Shown here in pieces: positions 22,832-32,634 of a DNA stretch of 32,634 nucleotides. Position numbers and translations under genes: made by a program. Where the stretch lies: assembly GCA_963169075.1 (NCBI GenBank), contig CAUJGC010000099.1:1-32634 (forward strand). The letters are read 5' to 3'. This stretch comes from Myxococcota bacterium. Its GTDB lineage: Bacteria > Myxococcota_A > Bradymonadia > Bradymonadales > GCA-2716585. Below the pieces are notes generated by a model. The model saw only the letters and a list, made by a program, of their open reading frames with translations, made no database searches and had not been told where the DNA came from. Numbering within the stretch: position 1 is the stretch's first letter; each line of letters begins with the position of its first letter.

Positions 22832-22862
22832 AGAGCCACGGACCAAGTTGGTCCGTGGCTCT
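22832..22862. terminator. Strong intrinsic terminator hairpin
   Basis: AGAGCCACGGACCA (22832-22845) and TGGTCCGTGGCTCT (22849-22862) make a perfect 14-bp stem with a 3-base loop, followed by ATTCTTTG on the plus strand and preceded by an A-rich stretch, so it can stop transcription from both sides. It separates the regulator pair from the minus-strand cluster, whose first stop is at 22918. Confidence 0.85.
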
Positions 22863-22917: not shown

Positions 22918-23166
22918 CTATCGACGGCGGGGGCGAGAGACCGTTGACGATGTTGCCGCAGGCATTGCGACTGGGGTGTTCGTAGTGGTCAGCGCTTCTG
23001 GGGGGAAACTCTTCTCATAGGGCTTACCTGTGTTGTCAGTCCATACGCAGAGGAAATGACCGCCATAGATCATCATCTCGCCATCGAGGAGTGCAGTGAT
23101 GGTCATCGCAGGACTTCCAGATTTCAGGTAAACGACATCGCCAATCTTAAGTTGTTGTTCGGTCAT
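22918..23166 (-). CDS. YodC-like (DUF2158) small protein
   Basis: 82 residues; AAGGA lies 8 bases before the ATG on its strand. The N terminus LKIGDVVYLKSGSPAMTITA is the hallmark of the YodC/DUF2158 family, and the later VWTDNTGKPYEKSFPPEAL fits its second half (a Trp-containing strand, then a lysine/phenylalanine stretch and a final FPPEAL). The last 20 residues (Thr/Ala/Arg-rich) are an extra tail. The protein is a small beta-barrel of unknown biochemical role. Base composition is lower in GC than the phage genes, suggesting separate origin. It is downstream of the DUF6575-like gene on the same strand, with a gap of about 110 bases. Confidence 0.83.
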   Translation of the reverse strand: MTEQQLKIGDVVYLKSGSPAMTITALLDGEMMIYGGHFLCVWTDNTGKPYEKSFPPEALTTTNTPVAMPAATSSTVSRPRRR

Positions 23167-23276: not shown

Positions 23277-24575
23277 TTATTGGAGATTGTATTCTAAGCC
23301 GATCAAAACGTACTTGTACTTGGTGTCACCCGCCGAAGTGACCTCTTCTATCTCTTCAAGAGTGGCATAGTAACTCCCACTAATGACAAGTCGAATCTTT
23401 CCGCCGAGAATGCTTTCGTGTACTTTGCCGGAATATTTTTTTGCGCTTATTTCTTCAACCAGCGCATAAGTGTTATTTGTTATGTCGAAAGCGACAAGTG
23501 TTCCCAGCACGCTGATCTCTTTGGACTCCTGGGAAACAAGCTCTTTGAGGCTTCGAGATGCTGTTCGTGCGCTGCTGTTTGATAAGCGTGAATGCTTGGG
23601 ATATGCTTGAGATGGAGAATCCCAGTCTGTTGAGACGTGCTGTGCATACTTTGATACTCGGTTGAGGAAATCAAGGTAACTAGAAGCAACGCGCCCTTTC
23701 ATTGACTTCACAAGGCTAAACAACTCTTGAATGTTGTCACCTGTGTCCAAGAGATTGCTTATTTGCTCCAGCACGGCATCAAGAGGGGATTCGTTGAACA
23801 AGTTGGAGGACTTGTTGGCCCTTATTAAAATCGCAAAAGAACCACCGCCAAAGCCAGCAGCATCCAATTGGAAATTATCCTGAACATCCGAGGGGAAGGC
23901 GCCTCTTTGATTTGGCCTTCCCGTGAGAGACTGACCGATTGCGTATACGAGTTGCTGAAGTGATTCCAGTATGCCTCCAAGAGGGGCAATTGGAGCTTCA
24001 GCAAAGATACCATTCAGGAATTCAATTTTAAAAACCATCACAGGGCACTTGAGCTGTCTAGAGAGCCGGTTGTCCTTCTCGAAAAACTGATCGACATTCA
24101 GAAAATGTCTTCCCTCATGCTCTTTCCAGAGTTCGACGCGCCCCGTGCCTGACTCAGCAGCAGTCCACGCTGGCATGAGGATCTCCTCCAGGTCAATCAA
24201 AGGGCACTCTTCGGGCAAGAAATAGCCCTTAAGAGGCAGCTCTGAGTCTCGAAGATCCTCAGCTACAACAACGTCAACGACAGGCTCTAAGTCTGTCGAT
24301 GTGTAAGATACCCGGTAAGAGTTAAGCACACCACGACCTTTGTAGATATCATGTACAGGGGTTTGGCGCTTGCGAAGAGACATCAGCTGGTGAAGAGTGA
24401 TAGGGGCATAGAGCCACGCCTGTCGCTCCTCAGAATCTTCAGATTGTGTCACAAGATACATGTTTGTAGGTGAGGAGACATTGCGACACAAGAAAAGAAG
24501 TGGAATGTCGAGTTCGATGTAAATCTCGACAATCTCCAGGGTTCCAAGCAGTGTCAAGTTGTAGCGCTCTGACAT
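23277..24575 (-). CDS. DUF6575-like protein, possible defence gene
   Basis: 432 residues from ATG 24575; an upstream in-frame TTG would add two. The N terminus SERYNLTLLGTLEIVEIYIE, then FLCRNVSSPTNMYLV and an AWLYAPIT strand, resembles DUF6575 as I know it. The central region (about 190-300) looks like a helical dimerisation part with a conserved-looking FGGGSFAILIRA segment. The C terminus is a strand-rich domain (VLGTLVAFDITNNTYALVEE, then KIRLVISGSYYATLEEIEEV) like a small barrel. It has no nuclease or ATPase motif I can see. GC content is much lower than the phage genes. Four bases separate the upstream stop from the longer TTG start, so the two genes are an operon. Function unknown; a defence role is a guess from the cargo setting. 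Confidence 0.68.
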   Translation of the reverse strand: MSERYNLTLLGTLEIVEIYIELDIPLLFLCRNVSSPTNMYLVTQSEDSEERQAWLYAPITLHQLMSLRKRQTPVHDIYKGRGVLNSYRVSYTSTDLEPVVDVVVAEDLRDSELPLKGYFLPEECPLIDLEEILMPAWTAAESGTGRVELWKEHEGRHFLNVDQFFEKDNRLSRQLKCPVMVFKIEFLNGIFAEAPIAPLGGILESLQQLVYAIGQSLTGRPNQRGAFPSDVQDNFQLDAAGFGGGSFAILIRANKSSNLFNESPLDAVLEQISNLLDTGDNIQELFSLVKSMKGRVASSYLDFLNRVSKYAQHVSTDWDSPSQAYPKHSRLSNSSARTASRSLKELVSQESKEISVLGTLVAFDITNNTYALVEEISAKKYSGKVHESILGGKIRLVISGSYYATLEEIEEVTSAGDTKYKYVLIGLEYNLQ

Positions 24576-24585
24576 TAACAATGCC

Positions 24586-24993
24586 TCATATCACAGCAAA
24601 CCGTGGAGAGGGGTCACATCCTGATGGAACCCACCACTCTTGATGAGATGGATAGTTTCGAGTTGGGTGTGTTTTGTGTTGACCCACGTTTCCATCTATT
24701 TGGCCTTTCGCGATTAACTTGTCTCGTTGGCCTGCGACTAATGAGCGAAGATTCTCGGCATCTTCCTTTTTGAGCATGACAGACGTGCCACACTTGTCGC
24801 ATGTTATGTTGGATTGTTTTTTGTTTGGATGCCCTACGGGTATGTTTAGTTTTCTTCTTCTCTGCTCTTCGCAGTGAGCTAAAAAATCATCAAATATCGG
24901 AGGGTCGTTGCTTACAAGGCGAAACACAGTTAGTGGATCTGTTTTAGCATCTAAGGGCGGGCAACCTTCGGGATAAAAGTCGGGCCACTCCAT
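24586..24993 (-). CDS. Small CxxC protein paired with the DUF6575-like gene
   Basis: 135 residues, ATG with GAGGGGA just upstream on its strand. It opens with PDFYPEGCPPLDAKTD, then TVFRLVSNDPPIFDDF, a pattern I have seen only in uncharacterised bacterial proteins. A half zinc ribbon ITCDKCGTSVMLKKEDAE lies at about residues 64-80, followed by a helical piece (LRSLVAGQRDKLI) and a His/Pro-rich end. It lies just upstream of the larger gene and has the same low GC, so they were probably acquired together. It might act as a partner or sensor for the larger protein. No family name is known to me. Confidence 0.65.
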   Translation of the reverse strand: MEWPDFYPEGCPPLDAKTDPLTVFRLVSNDPPIFDDFLAHCEEQRRRKLNIPVGHPNKKQSNITCDKCGTSVMLKKEDAENLRSLVAGQRDKLIAKGQIDGNVGQHKTHPTRNYPSHQEWWVPSGCDPSPRFAVI

Positions 24994-25247
24994 CAGTCCC
25001 CTCTACACAAGGTAAGGTGTGCCAAATGTTTAGCAACGGCAACGCCCTAATGGGTCTATTTGTTCAGGTCGGCCTCCATGGCCGCTCAGGTGGTGAGCAG
25101 GATGAATATGTCGGGCCAGTCGCTTCCTGTCAACATAAATAGGGTCGAAGTTGTCATTGAATGATGAATAAAATATGCAAATAAAATCAATGCTGACACG
25201 ATTTCTGTACCTCGCTACCCGCTGACCGACAGGCCACGGAGGAGCGC

Positions 25248-25580
25248 ATGGACTTGCAGCTCGGAGCAGACGGTGACCTCGCGCTGGAGCGAGGCGATGG
25301 GGTGAGGGTGGCGGGGGCGGCAGAGATCGCCCAGCGCCTCCGCCTCGCCCTGGGCACCCACACGGGGGAGTGGCTGCCTGGCACATCCTTCATCCTTCAC
25401 CGTCCCCCCACGGCCCACCTGGAGGCCACGACCGCGCCCAGAGGGCACCGCTCCTGGCGGCTTCGACAACGGGCCAGAGGAAGCCTCGGAGCTGGCAGAC
25501 GACAGCCTCCAGGCTCTCCTCCTCCAGCTTGTTCTTGCGGAGGAACGCCTTCCACTCCTTCTCTTTGTCAGGGCTCTTGA
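25248..25580 (+). pseudogene. Baseplate wedge (gp25/Mu gp46-like) gene, cut by AbiE insertion
   Basis: ATG 25248 has a strong GGAGGAG site. The first 43 residues (MDLQLGADGDLALERGDGVR, then IAQRLRLALGTHTGEWL) match the N terminus of small baseplate proteins of the gp25/gp46 type, which normally go on with a wedge domain after GEW. From about residue 44 the sequence turns into the low-complexity reading of the antisense AbiEii gene, so the break lies near 25380-25390. The remaining part of the gene is not seen beyond the AbiE pair. Such proteins belong to contractile-tail phages, so this fragment may come from another phage. Confidence 0.68.
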
Positions 25581-26304
25581 AGAAGGCCTCGGTCCACGCC
25601 ACGGGGAGGTCTGCGGGGAGGTCGGTCTGGCGCCGCTCGAAGGTCCGCTGGAACGCAAGAACAAGCTCCTCGCCGCTGAACTCGAAGCTCCTGGAGAGGA
25701 ACGCGACGTCGAAGAAGTCCTTGAGGCGGGTGTTGATCATCCCCAGGTCCATCATGGCCTGGCTCTTCTCCGCGATCACCGTCGCGCGAGGGTAGGCCCG
25801 CACCTCGGGGGCCGGTGAGTCGTCGAGCAGGGTGGGGTATCGCGCCGTGATCGCCCCTGGCGTCACAGCATCTCCGAAGCCGACATCGACGGACAGGGGG
25901 ATGACAGCGCCTCCCAGCGCGGCGCGGAGGGTGATCCGAACGCCCTCATACGCCAGGCCCTCCTTGATCCGGCTGGCGAGCACGGTGGAGGGGTCGAAGC
26001 TCAGACCGTCCTCGGGGGCCGCGACGGCGCACAGCTCCACAAAGATGGAATGGACACGCTCCAGGTCGGGGGAGCCGAACGACAGGAGATCGATGTCTCG
26101 GGTCGGGCGGTGGCGCAGGCTGGGGTCCCACAGGAAGAAGAGCGCCGCCCCTTTGAGGATGAAGCTGCTTGCGTGGGGGGATGCCCCGATCCGGTACAGC
26201 AGGCGCTCCATGCCATAGCGGGTCAACGTGAGGTTGAAGTCCTCCCGCTCGGCCTTGGCCTTGTTCAACAGGCGCTGCTTGATCGAAGCGGCGGGGTTCT
26301 TCAT
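25390..26304 (-). CDS. abiEii: AbiEii toxin (nucleotidyltransferase)
   Basis: 304 residues, ATG at 26304 overlapping the AbiEi stop (ATGA). Motifs of the DUF1814 nucleotidyltransferase are all present: a KGAALFF strand (51-57) and the catalytic RPTRDIDLLSFG (Asp70, Asp72), a third acidic residue in PLSVDVGFGD (about 140), the essential Lys in IAEKSQAMMD (180), and the RLKDFFDV block (about 193-200). Family members transfer nucleotides to tRNA and act in abortive infection. The last 17 residues (WARSWPPGGPWGDGEG) are Gly/Trp-rich and unlike the rest, read from flanking DNA; the natural end may have been near PVVEAAR. Intact and probably active. Confidence 0.92.
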   Translation of the reverse strand: MKNPAASIKQRLLNKAKAEREDFNLTLTRYGMERLLYRIGASPHASSFILKGAALFFLWDPSLRHRPTRDIDLLSFGSPDLERVHSIFVELCAVAAPEDGLSFDPSTVLASRIKEGLAYEGVRITLRAALGGAVIPLSVDVGFGDAVTPGAITARYPTLLDDSPAPEVRAYPRATVIAEKSQAMMDLGMINTRLKDFFDVAFLSRSFEFSGEELVLAFQRTFERRQTDLPADLPVAWTEAFFKSPDKEKEWKAFLRKNKLEEESLEAVVCQLRGFLWPVVEAARSGALWARSWPPGGPWGDGEG

Positions 26305-26906
26305 CGCCAGGCGCTCTCCAGATAGGGTTTCATGACGTTGGACACCCGGCACACCCGCGCGGCCTCCAGCAGCTCCTCCAGGGTACCGGCTCGCCGCTGC
26401 CTGTAGTCCTTCAGCGCGGCCAGGCAAGGCTCCAGCCCGAGCTGCCCCCGGAACTTGAAGCAGTCCGCGACCGTCTTCGCGGGGGAGGTGATATGGACCT
26501 CCACCCCCTCAATCCGGTGAGCCGTGACGCCATACCGGAAGGACGCCGCGGAGAACGCCACCAGGCGCAGGGGCAGCTCTTCCACCTGCGGGCAGGTCTG
26601 GCCGCGTTCGTAAGCCACCCAGACCTCAAAGGGGCTCTCGTCGGAGAGGCCGTGGAAGGCCAGCGCCGAGAGCAGGCACACCACCCCCTTCGGGAAGCGG
26701 GCCGCGGCTTCCACCAGGCTGTGATGCTCGGTGATGTCGGCCTCGGGGGACATGTAGACGCCGCGTGCCACGCGGAGCAGCTCCCCCTTCTCGACGAGGC
26801 GCCCGAGGATCGCGTGGGGAATCCCATGCGCGCTCACCTCCTGGGCGCTGATCACGCCCTGGGCTCGGGCGAGGTCCAGGAGCTGTTCGTGAAGTGGAGT
26901 CCCCAT
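26301..26906 (-). CDS. abiEi: AbiEi antitoxin and autorepressor
   Basis: 201 residues starting at ATG 26906. The N-terminal winged helix-turn-helix (ARAQGVISAQEVSAHGIPHA, then LGRLVEKGELLRVARGVYM) is the AbiEi_4 DNA-binding domain. The C-terminal domain (VVCLLSALAFHGLSDESPFE, VEVHITSPAKTVADCFKFR) is the AbiEi_1 part needed for antitoxin action. AbiEi proteins block AbiEii toxicity and repress their own promoter by binding inverted repeats. A matching 18-bp-armed inverted repeat lies 14 bases upstream of the start. Length is usual for the family, and the pair is co-translated by the ATGA overlap. Confidence 0.92.
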   Translation of the reverse strand: MGTPLHEQLLDLARAQGVISAQEVSAHGIPHAILGRLVEKGELLRVARGVYMSPEADITEHHSLVEAAARFPKGVVCLLSALAFHGLSDESPFEVWVAYERGQTCPQVEELPLRLVAFSAASFRYGVTAHRIEGVEVHITSPAKTVADCFKFRGQLGLEPCLAALKDYRQRRAGTLEELLEAARVCRVSNVMKPYLESAWR

Positions 26907-29364: not shown

Positions 29365-29446
29365 AAAATTTTTCGCACCAGGAAGGAGGGTTGAGCTCTG
29401 ACCCATCATGTGCTCTCATCTCCCCAGCGATGCTGAGGAGGTACAT

Positions 29447-30409
29447 ATGAGTCAGATGGAGCGCATCTACACGATCCACCGTCTTCTACAGCGAGGTAGG
29501 CCCGTCTCACGCCGCGAGCTGGAGGAGCGGTTTGAATGCTCCAGAAACACGATCTTGCGTGATATCCAGTACATGCGAGATCGCTTGGAGGCGCCGCTCA
29601 TCCACGTGCGCTCACCCTCTCCAGGGTACATCTACGATCCCGAGAAGCCTGCGTGGGAGCTGCCGGGGCAATGGCTTGGGCCTGGAGAGCTTCAGGGGTT
29701 GCTTGTGATGCAGGGGTGGCTGGAGAGCCTGAACCCCTCGCTGCTCAAGACCCTGATGGGGCCGATCCATGAGCGCTTCAAGGACATCTTGAAGCGCTTC
29801 AGCGACGGCGCCGACCTGGCGCGGGTCGTCGTCCAGCCCCTCGAAGCCAGGACCCCCGACGCCGACCAGTTCGCGCGGGTCGCCGAGGCGACGCTGACCC
29901 GAAAGGCTCTCCAGATCACCTACCACGGGCGGAGCCGGGACGCTGCTTCGACGCGGGTCGTGGACCCCCAGCAGATCGTCTTCCACCGCAACAGCGTCTA
30001 CCTGCTCGCCTGGTGCCACAAGGCTCAGGGGCTCCGCACCTTCGCGTTGGATCGCATCATCGACGCCGAGCTGCACGGGCCGGTCCGCTGCAACCTCCGG
30101 CCCGAGGAGCTGAAGACCATCGTCGCTGAGAGCTTCGGCATCTTCCTGGAGTCTCCGCAGGCGCTCGCGCGGCTGCGCTTCAGCCCCAAGCGGGCGCGCT
30201 GGGTACGGGACGAGAGCTGGCACACGCAGCAGCGCGGCGAAGAGCTCCCCGATGGGGGGTATCTCCTGGAGGTCCCCTTTGGCGACCCGACCGAGCTGAT
30301 CCTCGCGATCCTTCGACACGGCAAGGAGGTGGAGGTGCTTGAGCCCGCCTCACTCCGCGAGGCCGTCGCAGCCGAGCTACGGGCTGCGACGGAGCTCTAT
30401 AAGAGATGA
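29447..30409 (+). CDS. WYL-domain transcription regulator (HTH-WYL)
   Basis: 320 residues from ATG 29447, which has GAGGAGG 6 bases upstream; an upstream in-frame ATG at 29408 has no site. The N-terminal helix-turn-helix (IHRLLQRGRPVSRRELEERF, then CSRNTILRDIQYMRDRL) is of the DeoR/HTH_11 type. The WYL domain lies at about 145-225 (LQITYHGRSRDAASTRVVDP, then NSVYLLAWCHKAQGLRTFAL, DRI), and a WCX-like end follows (YLLEVPFGDPTELILAILRH). Members sense nucleic-acid or small ligands and often control CRISPR-Cas and other defence genes. It sits before the CRISPR repeats and cas3, so regulating that locus is the best guess. The stop codon overlaps the first repeat. Confidence 0.88.
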   Translation: MSQMERIYTIHRLLQRGRPVSRRELEERFECSRNTILRDIQYMRDRLEAPLIHVRSPSPGYIYDPEKPAWELPGQWLGPGELQGLLVMQGWLESLNPSLLKTLMGPIHERFKDILKRFSDGADLARVVVQPLEARTPDADQFARVAEATLTRKALQITYHGRSRDAASTRVVDPQQIVFHRNSVYLLAWCHKAQGLRTFALDRIIDAELHGPVRCNLRPEELKTIVAESFGIFLESPQALARLRFSPKRARWVRDESWHTQQRGEELPDGGYLLEVPFGDPTELILAILRHGKEVEVLEPASLREAVAAELRAATELYKR

Positions 30410-30491
30410 ATCCCCACAGTGTGGGGAACTGTGTTGCGTCGATGGCAACACCAAGGCGCTTGAAGGCCCATCCCCACAGCGTGGGGAACAT
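30404..30491 (-). CRISPR. Two type I-E-like repeats around one spacer (degenerate mini-array)
   Basis: A 20-base core ATCCCCACAGYGTGGGGAAC occurs at 30410-30429 and 30470-30489, differing at one base. The spacing is 60, which equals a 28-base repeat plus 32-base spacer, as in type I-E. The core matches the stem part of I-E repeats (GTTCCCCxxxxxxGGGGAT on the minus strand). The 8 bases that should form the 5' handle differ between the copies (ATGGGCCT and ATTCATCT) and from the usual ATAAACCG or ATGAACCG, so the array is degenerate. The spacer contains its own hairpin, GTGTTGC/GCAACAC over 7 bases. cas3 lies 600 bases away. Alternatives: paired operators, or an RNA structure. Confidence 0.55.
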
Positions 30492-30759
30492 AAAGTAAGG
30501 GCGAAGATCACACGGTCGCACCATCGCCATCAAGCCCGAATCCAGGTTAGCAGGCAAAACGTTCGGGGTCAAGGTATAAAGCACTTGACTTCTTTGGTGC
30601 TGGCGGAGGTTGTTTCTTAAAAACACTAAGGCTCTTGACTTAGGATTGAGCGCGCTTCATGTTGTGTATCGAGGCAGGGCAGCGTTCTGCCTCTCAACAA
30701 TGGCTCCGTGCATCTGCTCGCTTGAGTAGGCTGAGCCCCTGGCAACATGAGGCCTTACG
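30492..30759. other. Leader-like intergenic region beside the repeats
   Basis: No gene is seen. It is less GC-rich than the flanking genes and lies on the side where a minus-strand CRISPR leader would be. It holds two CTTGACTT words (30584-30591, 30634-30641), the segment TTTCTTAAAAACAC, and a hairpin GAGGCAG (30671-30677) with CTGCCTC (30687-30693). Promoters for the repeats on one strand and for the next gene on the other are likely, but I cannot place them. Confidence 0.35.
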
Positions 30760-31002
30760 GTGAAAGATTTATTTTGGATTGAGGTTAAAGGCGAGTCCGA
30801 TCGGAAGAATTATTTTCTTAAGCAGCCGACACTTCCAGGAACTTTATGTCATTCTACTAGATTAGATAGTACTGGCCGAACTATCTGTTGCTATGATTCC
30901 CCCGGGCCTGAGTCTGGAAACTATAGGGTTTTCAGGGCTTTGGACTCTTCGGGTCTTGAGGTTTGCTTTTTTGTGATCAGCACAGACCCTTGGCGTCCTT
31001 AG
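30760..31002 (+). CDS. AT-rich orphan protein between CRISPR repeats and cas3
   Basis: 80 residues from GTG 30760, with TGAGG about 9 bases upstream. Codons often end in T or A, unlike the GC-rich cas3 and phage genes. The product is strand-rich (DLFWIEVKGESDRKNYFLKQ, then GNYRVFRALDSSGLEVCFFV) with four cysteines (CHS, ICCYD, CFF) and no signal peptide or membrane helix; it looks like a small soluble beta protein. No family recognised. It ends 78 bases before cas3 and lies in the same direction. It may be a cas-linked accessory, an inserted gene, or a CRISPR inhibitor; nothing in the sequence decides. Confidence 0.55.
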   Translation: MKDLFWIEVKGESDRKNYFLKQPTLPGTLCHSTRLDSTGRTICCYDSPGPESGNYRVFRALDSSGLEVCFFVISTDPWRP

Positions 31003-31080
31003 AACTTTTGGGGTGGCGCCTCACTCTGTGGGGCGGTGCCTGTTTTACATTGCCCCCGGCTGATGCGTGAGGAGGTGAGT

Positions 31081-32634
31081 GTGGAGACCTATGTGACCCA
31101 GTACTGGGCAAAGACACGAGAAGAAGCGGACGGGAGCATGAGCTGGCACCCCGTCCCCTACCACAACCTGGATGTGGGGGCGTGCGCGGTGGTGCTGTGG
31201 GACAGCCTGCCACGGCTGCGCGCCTTGATGGTCCGCTTGACAGGGCTCCCCGAGGCGACGCTGCGGGCGACCGTGGGGTTCCTGATGAGCATCCATGACG
31301 TCGGAAAGTTTGCAGAGGGGTTCCAGGGGCTCTGCGAGGAGCTGAAGGATCGCCTCCAGGGGAGGGGTAGGACATATCCCTACAACACGCGCCACGATAC
31401 GGTGGGGTATGTCATCTGGGAGGAGGTGCTCCTGGATGAGCTCGCCGGGGGGAAGCTTGGAGGGGAGGGAGCTGACCCGGACCAGCTCCAGATCGTCCTG
31501 GGGCCTTGGCTGCGCGCTTCAATGGGGCACCACGGGAAGCCGCCCGAGGCGCAGCCGAAGGTGATGCTGCGCGAGCAGGTCCCCAAGAGCGTCAAGAGAG
31601 ATCTGCTGGCCTTCGTCCGCGATGCCCTCGCGCTCTTCGCGCCGGAGGGGCTGGAGCTTCCCTTGGAGTGGGAGGAGCTGGGGCAGGCGATGGAGCGAAG
31701 CTCCTGGGTGTTCGCGGGGCTCGCGGTGCTGGCGGACTGGATCGGCTCCAATCACCAGTGGTTCCACTTCGCGCCCCCGGCCTTCAGCGTCGCGGAGTAC
31801 TGGGAGCAGCGGGCGCTCCCGCAAGCGCGCGAAGCGGTCGCCGCCGCGGGCCTGGGCACGCTGGAGACCCGCGCGGAGACAGGGCTGGCGGCGCTCTTTC
31901 CGGCCTTCACCGAGGGGACGGCCCTCCAGCGCTTCTCCGAGGCGCTCCCGTTGGAGGCGGGGCCGACGCTGGTCATCATCGAGGAGGTCACCGGCGGAGG
32001 GAAGACGGAGGCCTCTCAGGTCCTCGCGCATCGCATGATCCGGGCTGGGCACGCCGAGGGGATCTTCATGGCGCTGCCCAGCATGGCGACGGCCAACGCC
32101 ATGCATCGCCGCGTCCGCGCGCTGGCGTCGCGCCTCTTTGAAGAAGGGGTGGAGGCGCCGCGGGTGGTCCTGGCGCACAGCGCCGACAAGACTGCGCTGC
32201 GGATGCAGGAGGTCGCCGGCGACGGGGAGTACGCTGCGGGAGAGCTCCGCGCCTCGACGGCGTGTCGCGCGTGGCTCTACGACAGCCGCAAGAAGGCGCT
32301 CCTGGCCCAGCTCGGCGTGGGCACCATCGACCAGGCGTTGATGGGGGTGCTGCCGCTGCGGCACCAGTCGCTGCGGCTCTTCGGGATGAGCCGCAACGTC
32401 TTCATCGTGGATGAGGTCCACGCGTGTGATGCCTACGTCCTCCGCCTGCTGGAGCGCTTGCTGGAGTTCCACGCGGCGTTGGGGGGCAGCGCGATCCTGA
32501 TGTCGGCGACCTTGCCGCTCCAGATGCGGCGCTCGCTCACGGCGGCCTTCGCGAAGGGGGCGGGGTACAAGACCCCGGCGCTTCGCGAGCAGGCCTACCC
32601 CCTCGTCACCCAGCTCGGCGCTGACGCCCTCCTC
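31081..32634 (+). CDS. cas3: CRISPR-associated helicase/nuclease Cas3, type I-E-like (partial)
   Basis: 518 codons to the window edge; the stop is outside. Start chosen at GTG 31081 because GAGGAGG ends 7 bases before it; an in-frame ATG at 31063 has no site. The N-terminal HD nuclease has YHNLDVGAC (His near residue 26), the key SIHDVGKFAEGFQ (His-Asp near 71-72) and a GHHGKPPE motif, then LADWIGSNHQWF, very like I-E Cas3. The helicase follows: motif I EVTGGGKTEAS (about 302-312), ALPSMATANAM, the DEVH box in FIVDEVHACDAYVLRLL (about 443), and MSATLPLQM. It unwinds and degrades DNA marked by Cascade. The later helicase lobe and C-terminal domain are not visible. Confidence 0.94.
   Translation, partial: METYVTQYWAKTREEADGSMSWHPVPYHNLDVGACAVVLWDSLPRLRALMVRLTGLPEATLRATVGFLMSIHDVGKFAEGFQGLCEELKDRLQGRGRTYPYNTRHDTVGYVIWEEVLLDELAGGKLGGEGADPDQLQIVLGPWLRASMGHHGKPPEAQPKVMLREQVPKSVKRDLLAFVRDALALFAPEGLELPLEWEELGQAMERSSWVFAGLAVLADWIGSNHQWFHFAPPAFSVAEYWEQRALPQAREAVAAAGLGTLETRAETGLAALFPAFTEGTALQRFSEALPLEAGPTLVIIEEVTGGGKTEASQVLAHRMIRAGHAEGIFMALPSMATANAMHRRVRALASRLFEEGVEAPRVVLAHSADKTALRMQEVAGDGEYAAGELRASTACRAWLYDSRKKALLAQLGVGTIDQALMGVLPLRHQSLRLFGMSRNVFIVDEVHACDAYVLRLLERLLEFHAALGGSAILMSATLPLQMRRSLTAAFAKGAGYKTPALREQAYPLVTQLGADALL

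What the first reader, a model, noticed from the sequence alone, without database searches (positions are those of the whole stretch)
23277..24993. Low-GC two-gene unit with a DUF6575-like protein: candidate new defence system
Two minus-strand genes, a few bases apart, stand out by low GC in a GC-rich phage and lie in an accessory stretch that also carries an AbiE system. The larger has a DUF6575-like N terminus and a C-terminal barrel-like part; the smaller has an FYPEGCPP motif and a half zinc ribbon. Neither has a known activity. Conserved pairing, cargo position and foreign composition are the usual marks of a defence or counter-defence module.
Basis: partly seen in the sequence, partly recalled or inferred. 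Interest (0 to 1): 0.62.

Follow-up and report, generated by a model that had tools for sequence, protein, structure and literature searches.

The report
Phage-borne relative of PD-T4-10 toxin-antitoxin
Two low-GC genes carried by a phage in a Myxococcota genome form a strictly conserved pair that is distantly related to PD-T4-10, an already tested toxin-antitoxin system that makes infected bacteria stop growing so that phage cannot spread; it is therefore a divergent version of a known kind of defence rather than a new kind.

Summary
Two adjacent minus-strand genes (135 and 432-434 aa) lie at the stated coordinates, at 47% GC against 68% for the rest of the window. The larger is a DUF6575 protein above Pfam's cut-off (E 4.8e-13). 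The contig is a phage (terminase, portal, major head protein) in a Myxococcota genome.

Pairing is real: all 10 small-gene homologues found in 379 same-phylum genomes, and all 51 further DUF6575 loci checked, carry both genes. Their sequence distances co-vary (Mantel r 0.87). Homologues sit in prophage cargo slots or beside Druantia and restriction-modification genes.

It is not a new kind of system. Homologues of both genes hit PADLOC PD-T4-10_A and PD-T4-10_B. PD-T4-10 is a published abortive-infection toxin-antitoxin system. The window pair is a remote branch: neither of its proteins reaches the PD-T4-10 models directly, and its C-terminal module resembles candidate family PDC-M63B.

Best explanation: phage-carried toxin-antitoxin, small = antitoxin, DUF6575 protein = toxin, used for superinfection defence. 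New here: the small protein's model looks weakly ADP-ribosyltransferase-like, and DUF6575 is a constant domain joined to interchangeable C-terminal modules.

The parts
24586..24993 (-). small protein, 135 aa, first gene; proposed antitoxin (PD-T4-10_A-like superfamily); predicted alpha+beta fold weakly ADP-ribosyltransferase-like
   Evidence: profile match of homologues to PADLOC PD-T4-10_A; family profile; AlphaFold2 pLDDT 90.1, pTM 0.83; Foldseek
23277..24581 (-). large protein, 434 aa from TTG (432 aa from ATG 24575), second gene; DUF6575 N-terminus; proposed toxin (PD-T4-10_B-like superfamily)
   Evidence: PF20215 E 4.8e-13, residues 10-217; PDC-M63B E 1.1e-9, residues 201-362; profile-profile match to the enterobacterial type over columns 8-322, E 1.2e-20
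24207..24554 (-). DUF6575 domain (about residues 10-125), the constant module of all paired large proteins
   Evidence: modelled at pLDDT mostly 72-91
23277..24011 (-). variable C-terminal module (about residues 191-434): helices plus a low-confidence beta part; shared with PDC-M63B, phrog_6603 and, through homologue L034, PDC-M32A
25105..25133 (-). sigma-70-like promoter, TTGACA-17-CATATT, upstream of the small gene (consensus match only)
   Evidence: 10 of 12 matches; 4 sites found vs 2.0 expected in the region, so suggestive only
22918..23166 (-). DUF2158 small protein, co-directional, lower GC (0.53); probably passenger of the same block, not part of the conserved pair
   Evidence: PF09926 E 1.3e-11; GC; no DUF2158 annotated beside the pair in annotated homologous loci
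22832..22862 (-). intrinsic-terminator-like hairpin (14 pairs) at the end of the low-GC block

Best explanation
A two-gene toxin-antitoxin module of the PD-T4-10 superfamily, carried as cargo by a phage of Myxococcota. The first gene makes a small antitoxin that holds the second gene's product, a DUF6575 protein, inactive. During infection by another phage the balance is broken (loss of the antitoxin through host shut-off, or a direct phage trigger), the DUF6575 protein is freed, and its activity arrests the cell so that the invading phage cannot spread (abortive infection). Shown here: genes, conserved order, pairing, co-variation, mobile and defence context, homology of the superfamily to PD-T4-10. 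Inferred from PD-T4-10 in E. coli: which partner is toxic, neutralisation, abortive infection. Unknown: the toxin's target, the trigger, and which domain kills.
For: Homologous pairs hit PD-T4-10_A and PD-T4-10_B in the same gene order; a Myxococcota pair, L022, is a clear PD-T4-10 (E 1.6e-29 and 9.8e-32) and its small gene was found by the profile that includes the window gene (E 3.5e-6). The DUF6575 and middle regions of window-type and enterobacterial proteins are homologous (E 1.2e-20). PD-T4-10B is toxic, PD-T4-10A neutralises it and cannot be deleted, and the system gives abortive defence against T-even phages (PMC9519451). Pairing 10/10 in Myxococcota and 51/51 in other fetched loci; genes usually abut or overlap by a few bases. 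Mantel r 0.87, 0 of 5000 permutations, and 0.79, 2 of 5000, among ten divergent pairs. Enterobacterial prophage pairs lie between antiterminator and lysis genes, or lysis genes and terminase. Oscillatoria's pair directly follows Druantia DruE. Pair GC is below flanks in 13 of 13 loci.
Against: Neither window protein itself matches a PD-T4-10 model; the link runs through intermediates. The window small protein and L022's small protein do not align significantly by BLAST (E 0.26). The C-terminal module differs from the enterobacterial type, so toxicity need not carry over if it lies there. PDC-M63AB, which shares that module, gave no measurable protection when deleted from E. coli NILS69 and tested with ten phages (PMC12409345). 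G004 (L018) and phage contig L038 carry a DUF6575 protein with no small gene found, which is unexpected for a freely toxic protein.
Confidence: 0.68

Rival explanations
1. A two-protein defence complex that is not a toxin-antitoxin: the small protein is the sensor or enzyme and the DUF6575 protein an adaptor with an interchangeable effector, activated only on infection.
For: DUF6575 is fused to different C-terminal modules: PDC-M63B/M32A type, DUF7226, a membrane-spanning stretch in L038, or almost nothing in L033. The small protein's model is weakly ADP-ribosyltransferase-like with a near-invariant Arg and an invariant Ser and His. Modular effector swapping is typical of sensor-effector defence systems (general knowledge).
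Against: The characterised relative PD-T4-10 behaves as a toxin-antitoxin pair (PMC9519451).
Confidence: 0.17
2. An addiction or superinfection-exclusion cargo whose main benefit is keeping the (pro)phage, with little defence against unrelated phages.
For: Enterobacterial homologues are typical prophage cargo at moron sites; homologues also occur on plasmids; no protection seen for the related PDC-M63AB in one strain (PMC12409345).
Against: PD-T4-10 was found by selection for T4 defence (PMC9519451); some homologues lie beside Druantia and type I restriction genes.
Confidence: 0.1
3. A phage counter-defence or regulatory module used in the phage's own lytic cycle.
Against: Homologues also occur on plasmids and in defence neighbourhoods of several phyla; tblastn with a homologue found none in 50,697 phage records although prophage-derived viral contigs hold many, which points to temperate cargo rather than a lytic-cycle gene.
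Confidence: 0.05

Closest known systems
PD-T4-10 (PD-T4-10A antitoxin, PD-T4-10B toxin; Vassallo et al. 2022, PMC9519451)
   Same: gene order, small protein of the same superfamily, DUF6575-type N-terminus in the second protein, mobile-element context
   Different: window proteins do not reach the PADLOC PD-T4-10 models; the large protein is longer (432-434 aa against a 353-position model) with another C-terminal module
PDC-M63 (PADLOC candidate; PDC-M63B)
   Same: C-terminal half of the large protein (residues 194-426) matches PDC-M63B, best E 1.1e-9
   Different: PDC-M63B (309 positions) matches only from about position 76 on, so its N-terminus is not shown to be DUF6575; no PDC-M63A match for the small protein; tested once without detectable defence (PMC12409345)
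PDC-M32 (PADLOC candidate; PDC-M32A)
   Same: the C-terminal module of the Myxococcota homologue L034 matches PDC-M32A, E 1.1e-6
   Different: no match of the window protein itself
Pfam DUF6575 (PF20215)
   Same: N-terminal domain, above the curated cut-off
   Different: a domain of unknown function; says nothing on activity
ART-fold proteins (ParT, RES-Xre toxin, PARP family)
   Same: highest TM-scores of the small protein's model
   Different: TM only 0.31-0.41, E above 1, no sequence match; in toxin-antitoxin systems known to me this fold is in the toxin, here it would be in the proposed antitoxin

Membership tests
PD-T4-10 | small first gene matching PD-T4-10_A | tested here: inconclusive
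   window small gene: no hit; homologues of the same profile family hit at 4.7e-10 to 0.0064, L022 at 1.6e-29
PD-T4-10 | second gene matching PD-T4-10_B | tested here: inconclusive
   window large gene: no PD-T4-10_B hit; homologues hit on the N-terminal domain at up to 2.8e-10 and L022 at 9.8e-32
PD-T4-10 | two adjoining or overlapping genes, small one first | tested here: met
   window gap 4-10 bases; homologues mostly overlap
PD-T4-10 | second protein toxic, first neutralises it, abortive defence against T-even phages | not testable with these tools
   needs expression and phage assays
PDC-M63 | PDC-M63B-like protein | tested here: inconclusive
   C-terminal half only, E 1.1e-9
PDC-M63 | PDC-M63A partner | tested here: not met
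   small protein matches no PADLOC model at E up to 1
DUF6575 (PF20215) | score above the curated cut-off | tested here: met
   49.5 bits vs 26.6
ART superfamily (small protein) | significant structural match | tested here: inconclusive
   the eight highest TMq values among the 50 PDB hits shown are ART-fold proteins, but TM 0.31-0.41 and E above 1; PARP-like, DarT, 2'-phosphotransferase and rifampin ART among viral hits, also weak
ART superfamily (small protein) | catalytic triad residues (R-S-E or H-Y-E) | tested here: inconclusive
   R25 (21 of 23) and S71 (23 of 23) conserved, no Glu among positions conserved in 70% or more; H117 and W121 invariant. Mapping to ART motifs is by eye

The most novel reading that the evidence does not exclude
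The small protein is an ADP-ribosyltransferase-fold antitoxin or sensor that controls DUF6575 toxins through NAD+ or ADP-ribose chemistry (for example by modifying the toxin), and DUF6575 is the docking domain through which one antitoxin type controls several interchangeable toxic modules: a modular, enzyme-controlled toxin-antitoxin superfamily.
Probability: 0.12. Interest if true: 0.75.

Novelty: new variant of a known kind. Interest (0 to 1): 0.42.

Why it matters
PD-T4-10 was described from E. coli, and I found no mechanism paper on it in the library searched. This work places it in a wider superfamily, in Myxococcota, Cyanobacteria, Actinobacteria and enterobacterial prophages, with one constant pair (small protein plus DUF6575) and several C-terminal modules, one of which also occurs in the candidate families PDC-M63 and PDC-M32. 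It gives concrete domain-swap tests and a fold hypothesis for the antitoxin.

Tried and rejected
Direct search of genome contigs (large protein) and viral contigs (small protein) with the window proteins alone found nothing; alignments of intermediates were needed. PDB sequence searches gave no credible match. A Pfam scan of the small family at loose E-values gave only chance-level, inconsistent hits, none of them an ART family. Fold search with the large protein's model (pLDDT 68, pTM 0.48) gave no meaningful match. The zinc-ribbon idea was rejected on conservation. A 'solo' DUF6575 in Arthrobacter was rejected after a profile found a small-like unannotated reading frame directly upstream, E 5e-10. 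No paper beyond PMC9519451 was found for PD-T4-10 or DUF6575.

Full report
OBSERVATION. The small gene (24586-24993, minus) precedes the large one (23277-24581, minus) by 4 bases if the large one starts at TTG 24581, or 10 if it starts at ATG 24575. The pair is 47.0% GC and the window outside 22.8-25.2 kb is 67.9%; third-position GC is 0.41 and 0.50 against 0.81-0.96 for ten of eleven other window genes measured (the exception is the 80-aa ORF at 30760-31002, 0.41). A promoter-like site (TTGACA-17-CATATT, 25133-25105) lies upstream and a 14-pair hairpin terminator at 22862-22832 closes the low-GC block, after a small DUF2158 gene. The window lies at G000:C99:1-32634 and has terminase, portal and major head genes.

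IDENTITY. The large protein scores 49.5 bits against DUF6575 (cut-off 26.6), and its C-terminal half matches PADLOC candidate PDC-M63B, best E 1.1e-9. The small protein matches nothing directly. Plasmid relatives gave the first pairs, small gene then DUF6575 gene: Oscillatoria, Rhodococcus, Rahnella, then E. coli and Pantoea. PADLOC scans of five such pairs returned PD-T4-10_A for all five small proteins and PD-T4-10_B for four of five large ones. One Myxococcota pair, L022, is a clear PD-T4-10.

KNOWN BIOLOGY OF PD-T4-10. Vassallo et al. 2022 (PMC9519451) found PD-T4-10 by selection for T4 resistance. The second component is toxic, the first neutralises it and cannot be deleted, and defence is abortive and directed at T-even phages. 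The paper lists DUF6575 among domains new to defence without, in the passages read, saying for which system; that it is PD-T4-10B is my inference from the profile matches. PDC-M63AB, in an E. coli prophage, was deleted and tested against ten phages with no effect (PMC12409345).

PAIRING. In 379 genomes of the phylum, the small-protein profile found ten genomes and the DUF6575 profile six. All ten small genes have a DUF6575-like frame directly downstream or overlapping (confirmed by a local profile for G007, G016, G080, G099 and G293). Five of these large proteins were missed by the Pfam search. One DUF6575 gene, in G004, has no small gene found. Of 51 loci fetched with large-protein queries, four from genomes and 47 from viral contigs, all 51 have the small gene upstream, most overlapping by 1-25 bases when the longest start is used. 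These 47 viral loci include close relatives, so they are not 47 independent events. Distances in the two proteins co-vary (Mantel r 0.87, 0/5000; among ten divergent pairs 0.79, 2/5000).

CONTEXT. The enterobacterial pairs lie between antiterminator and lysis genes, or between lysis genes and terminase, in prophages, which are cargo slots. Oscillatoria's pair directly follows Druantia DruE; Arthrobacter and G007 lie near type I restriction-modification genes; G176 lies near a DNA methyltransferase. In 13 of 13 loci the pair has lower GC than its flanks, by 0.5 to 16 points.

ARCHITECTURE. Profile-profile comparison shows the first 322 columns of the window type to be homologous to the enterobacterial type (E 1.2e-20), with different C-termini beyond. 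Enterobacterial proteins end in a region weakly like DUF7226; L034 ends in a PDC-M32A-like module; L033 is hardly more than DUF6575; phage contig L038 carries DUF6575 followed by a single hydrophobic stretch and no small gene. DUF6575 with the small protein is thus the constant part, and the C-terminus varies.

STRUCTURE. The small protein is modelled well (pLDDT 90.1, pTM 0.83). No PDB match is significant, but the eight highest query TM-scores in the list shown (0.31-0.41) are ADP-ribosyltransferase-fold proteins of several families, including the ParT and RES toxins, PARPs, a bacterial toxin subunit and IcmQ; the next value is 0.23 (that IcmQ has this fold is from my own knowledge). Weak viral hits include PARP-like, DarT, RNA 2'-phosphotransferase and rifampin ADP-ribosyltransferase proteins. 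Conserved residues are P12, P13, S71, A95, G104, H117 and W121 (all invariant in 23) and R25 (21 of 23); no conserved glutamate appears. I read this as a possible degenerate ART-like fold, not as a shown enzyme. The large model is poor beyond the DUF6575 domain.

MECHANISM. Most likely a toxin-antitoxin with the small protein as antitoxin, giving abortive infection and protecting the population of lysogens or carrier cells. Shown: homology, order, pairing, context. Inferred: toxicity, neutralisation, abortive outcome. Unknown: target, trigger, and which domain is toxic.

VERDICT. A real, well-conserved, phage-borne defence-type module; a divergent variant of PD-T4-10, not a new kind.

Noticed in passing
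window 25390-26906 (-): AbiEi/AbiEii type IV toxin-antitoxin pair of normal phage GC (0.67-0.69), next to the low-GC block; so two toxin-antitoxin-type modules sit side by side on this phage.
   Followed up: partly
window 29408-30409 (+): HTH_11-WYL-WCX transcriptional regulator (WYL E 8.9e-22). WYL proteins often regulate defence genes; not linked to the pair here.
   Followed up: no
window 30301-31200: Second low-GC patch (0.53) with an 80-aa ORF at 30760-31002 (GC 0.44) that matches no Pfam family.
   Followed up: no
window 22918-23166 (-): DUF2158 small protein closing the low-GC block just before a strong terminator hairpin; may be a third cargo gene.
   Followed up: partly
L038 3131-3613 (+): IMG/VR phage contig with a DUF6575 domain followed by one predicted membrane-spanning stretch and no small partner.
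   Followed up: partly
L004 7525-7977 (+): Unannotated reading frame matching the small-protein profile (E 5e-10) directly before an Arthrobacter plasmid DUF6575 gene.
   Followed up: partly
L037 1828-4053 (-): G007 locus with two degenerate copies of the small/large pair beside a type I methyltransferase gene, a broken remnant of the system.
   Followed up: no
L034 2783-3955 (-): DUF6575-like N-terminus (PD-T4-10_B E 1e-9) joined to a PDC-M32A-like C-terminus, linking two separately catalogued defence candidates.
   Followed up: partly
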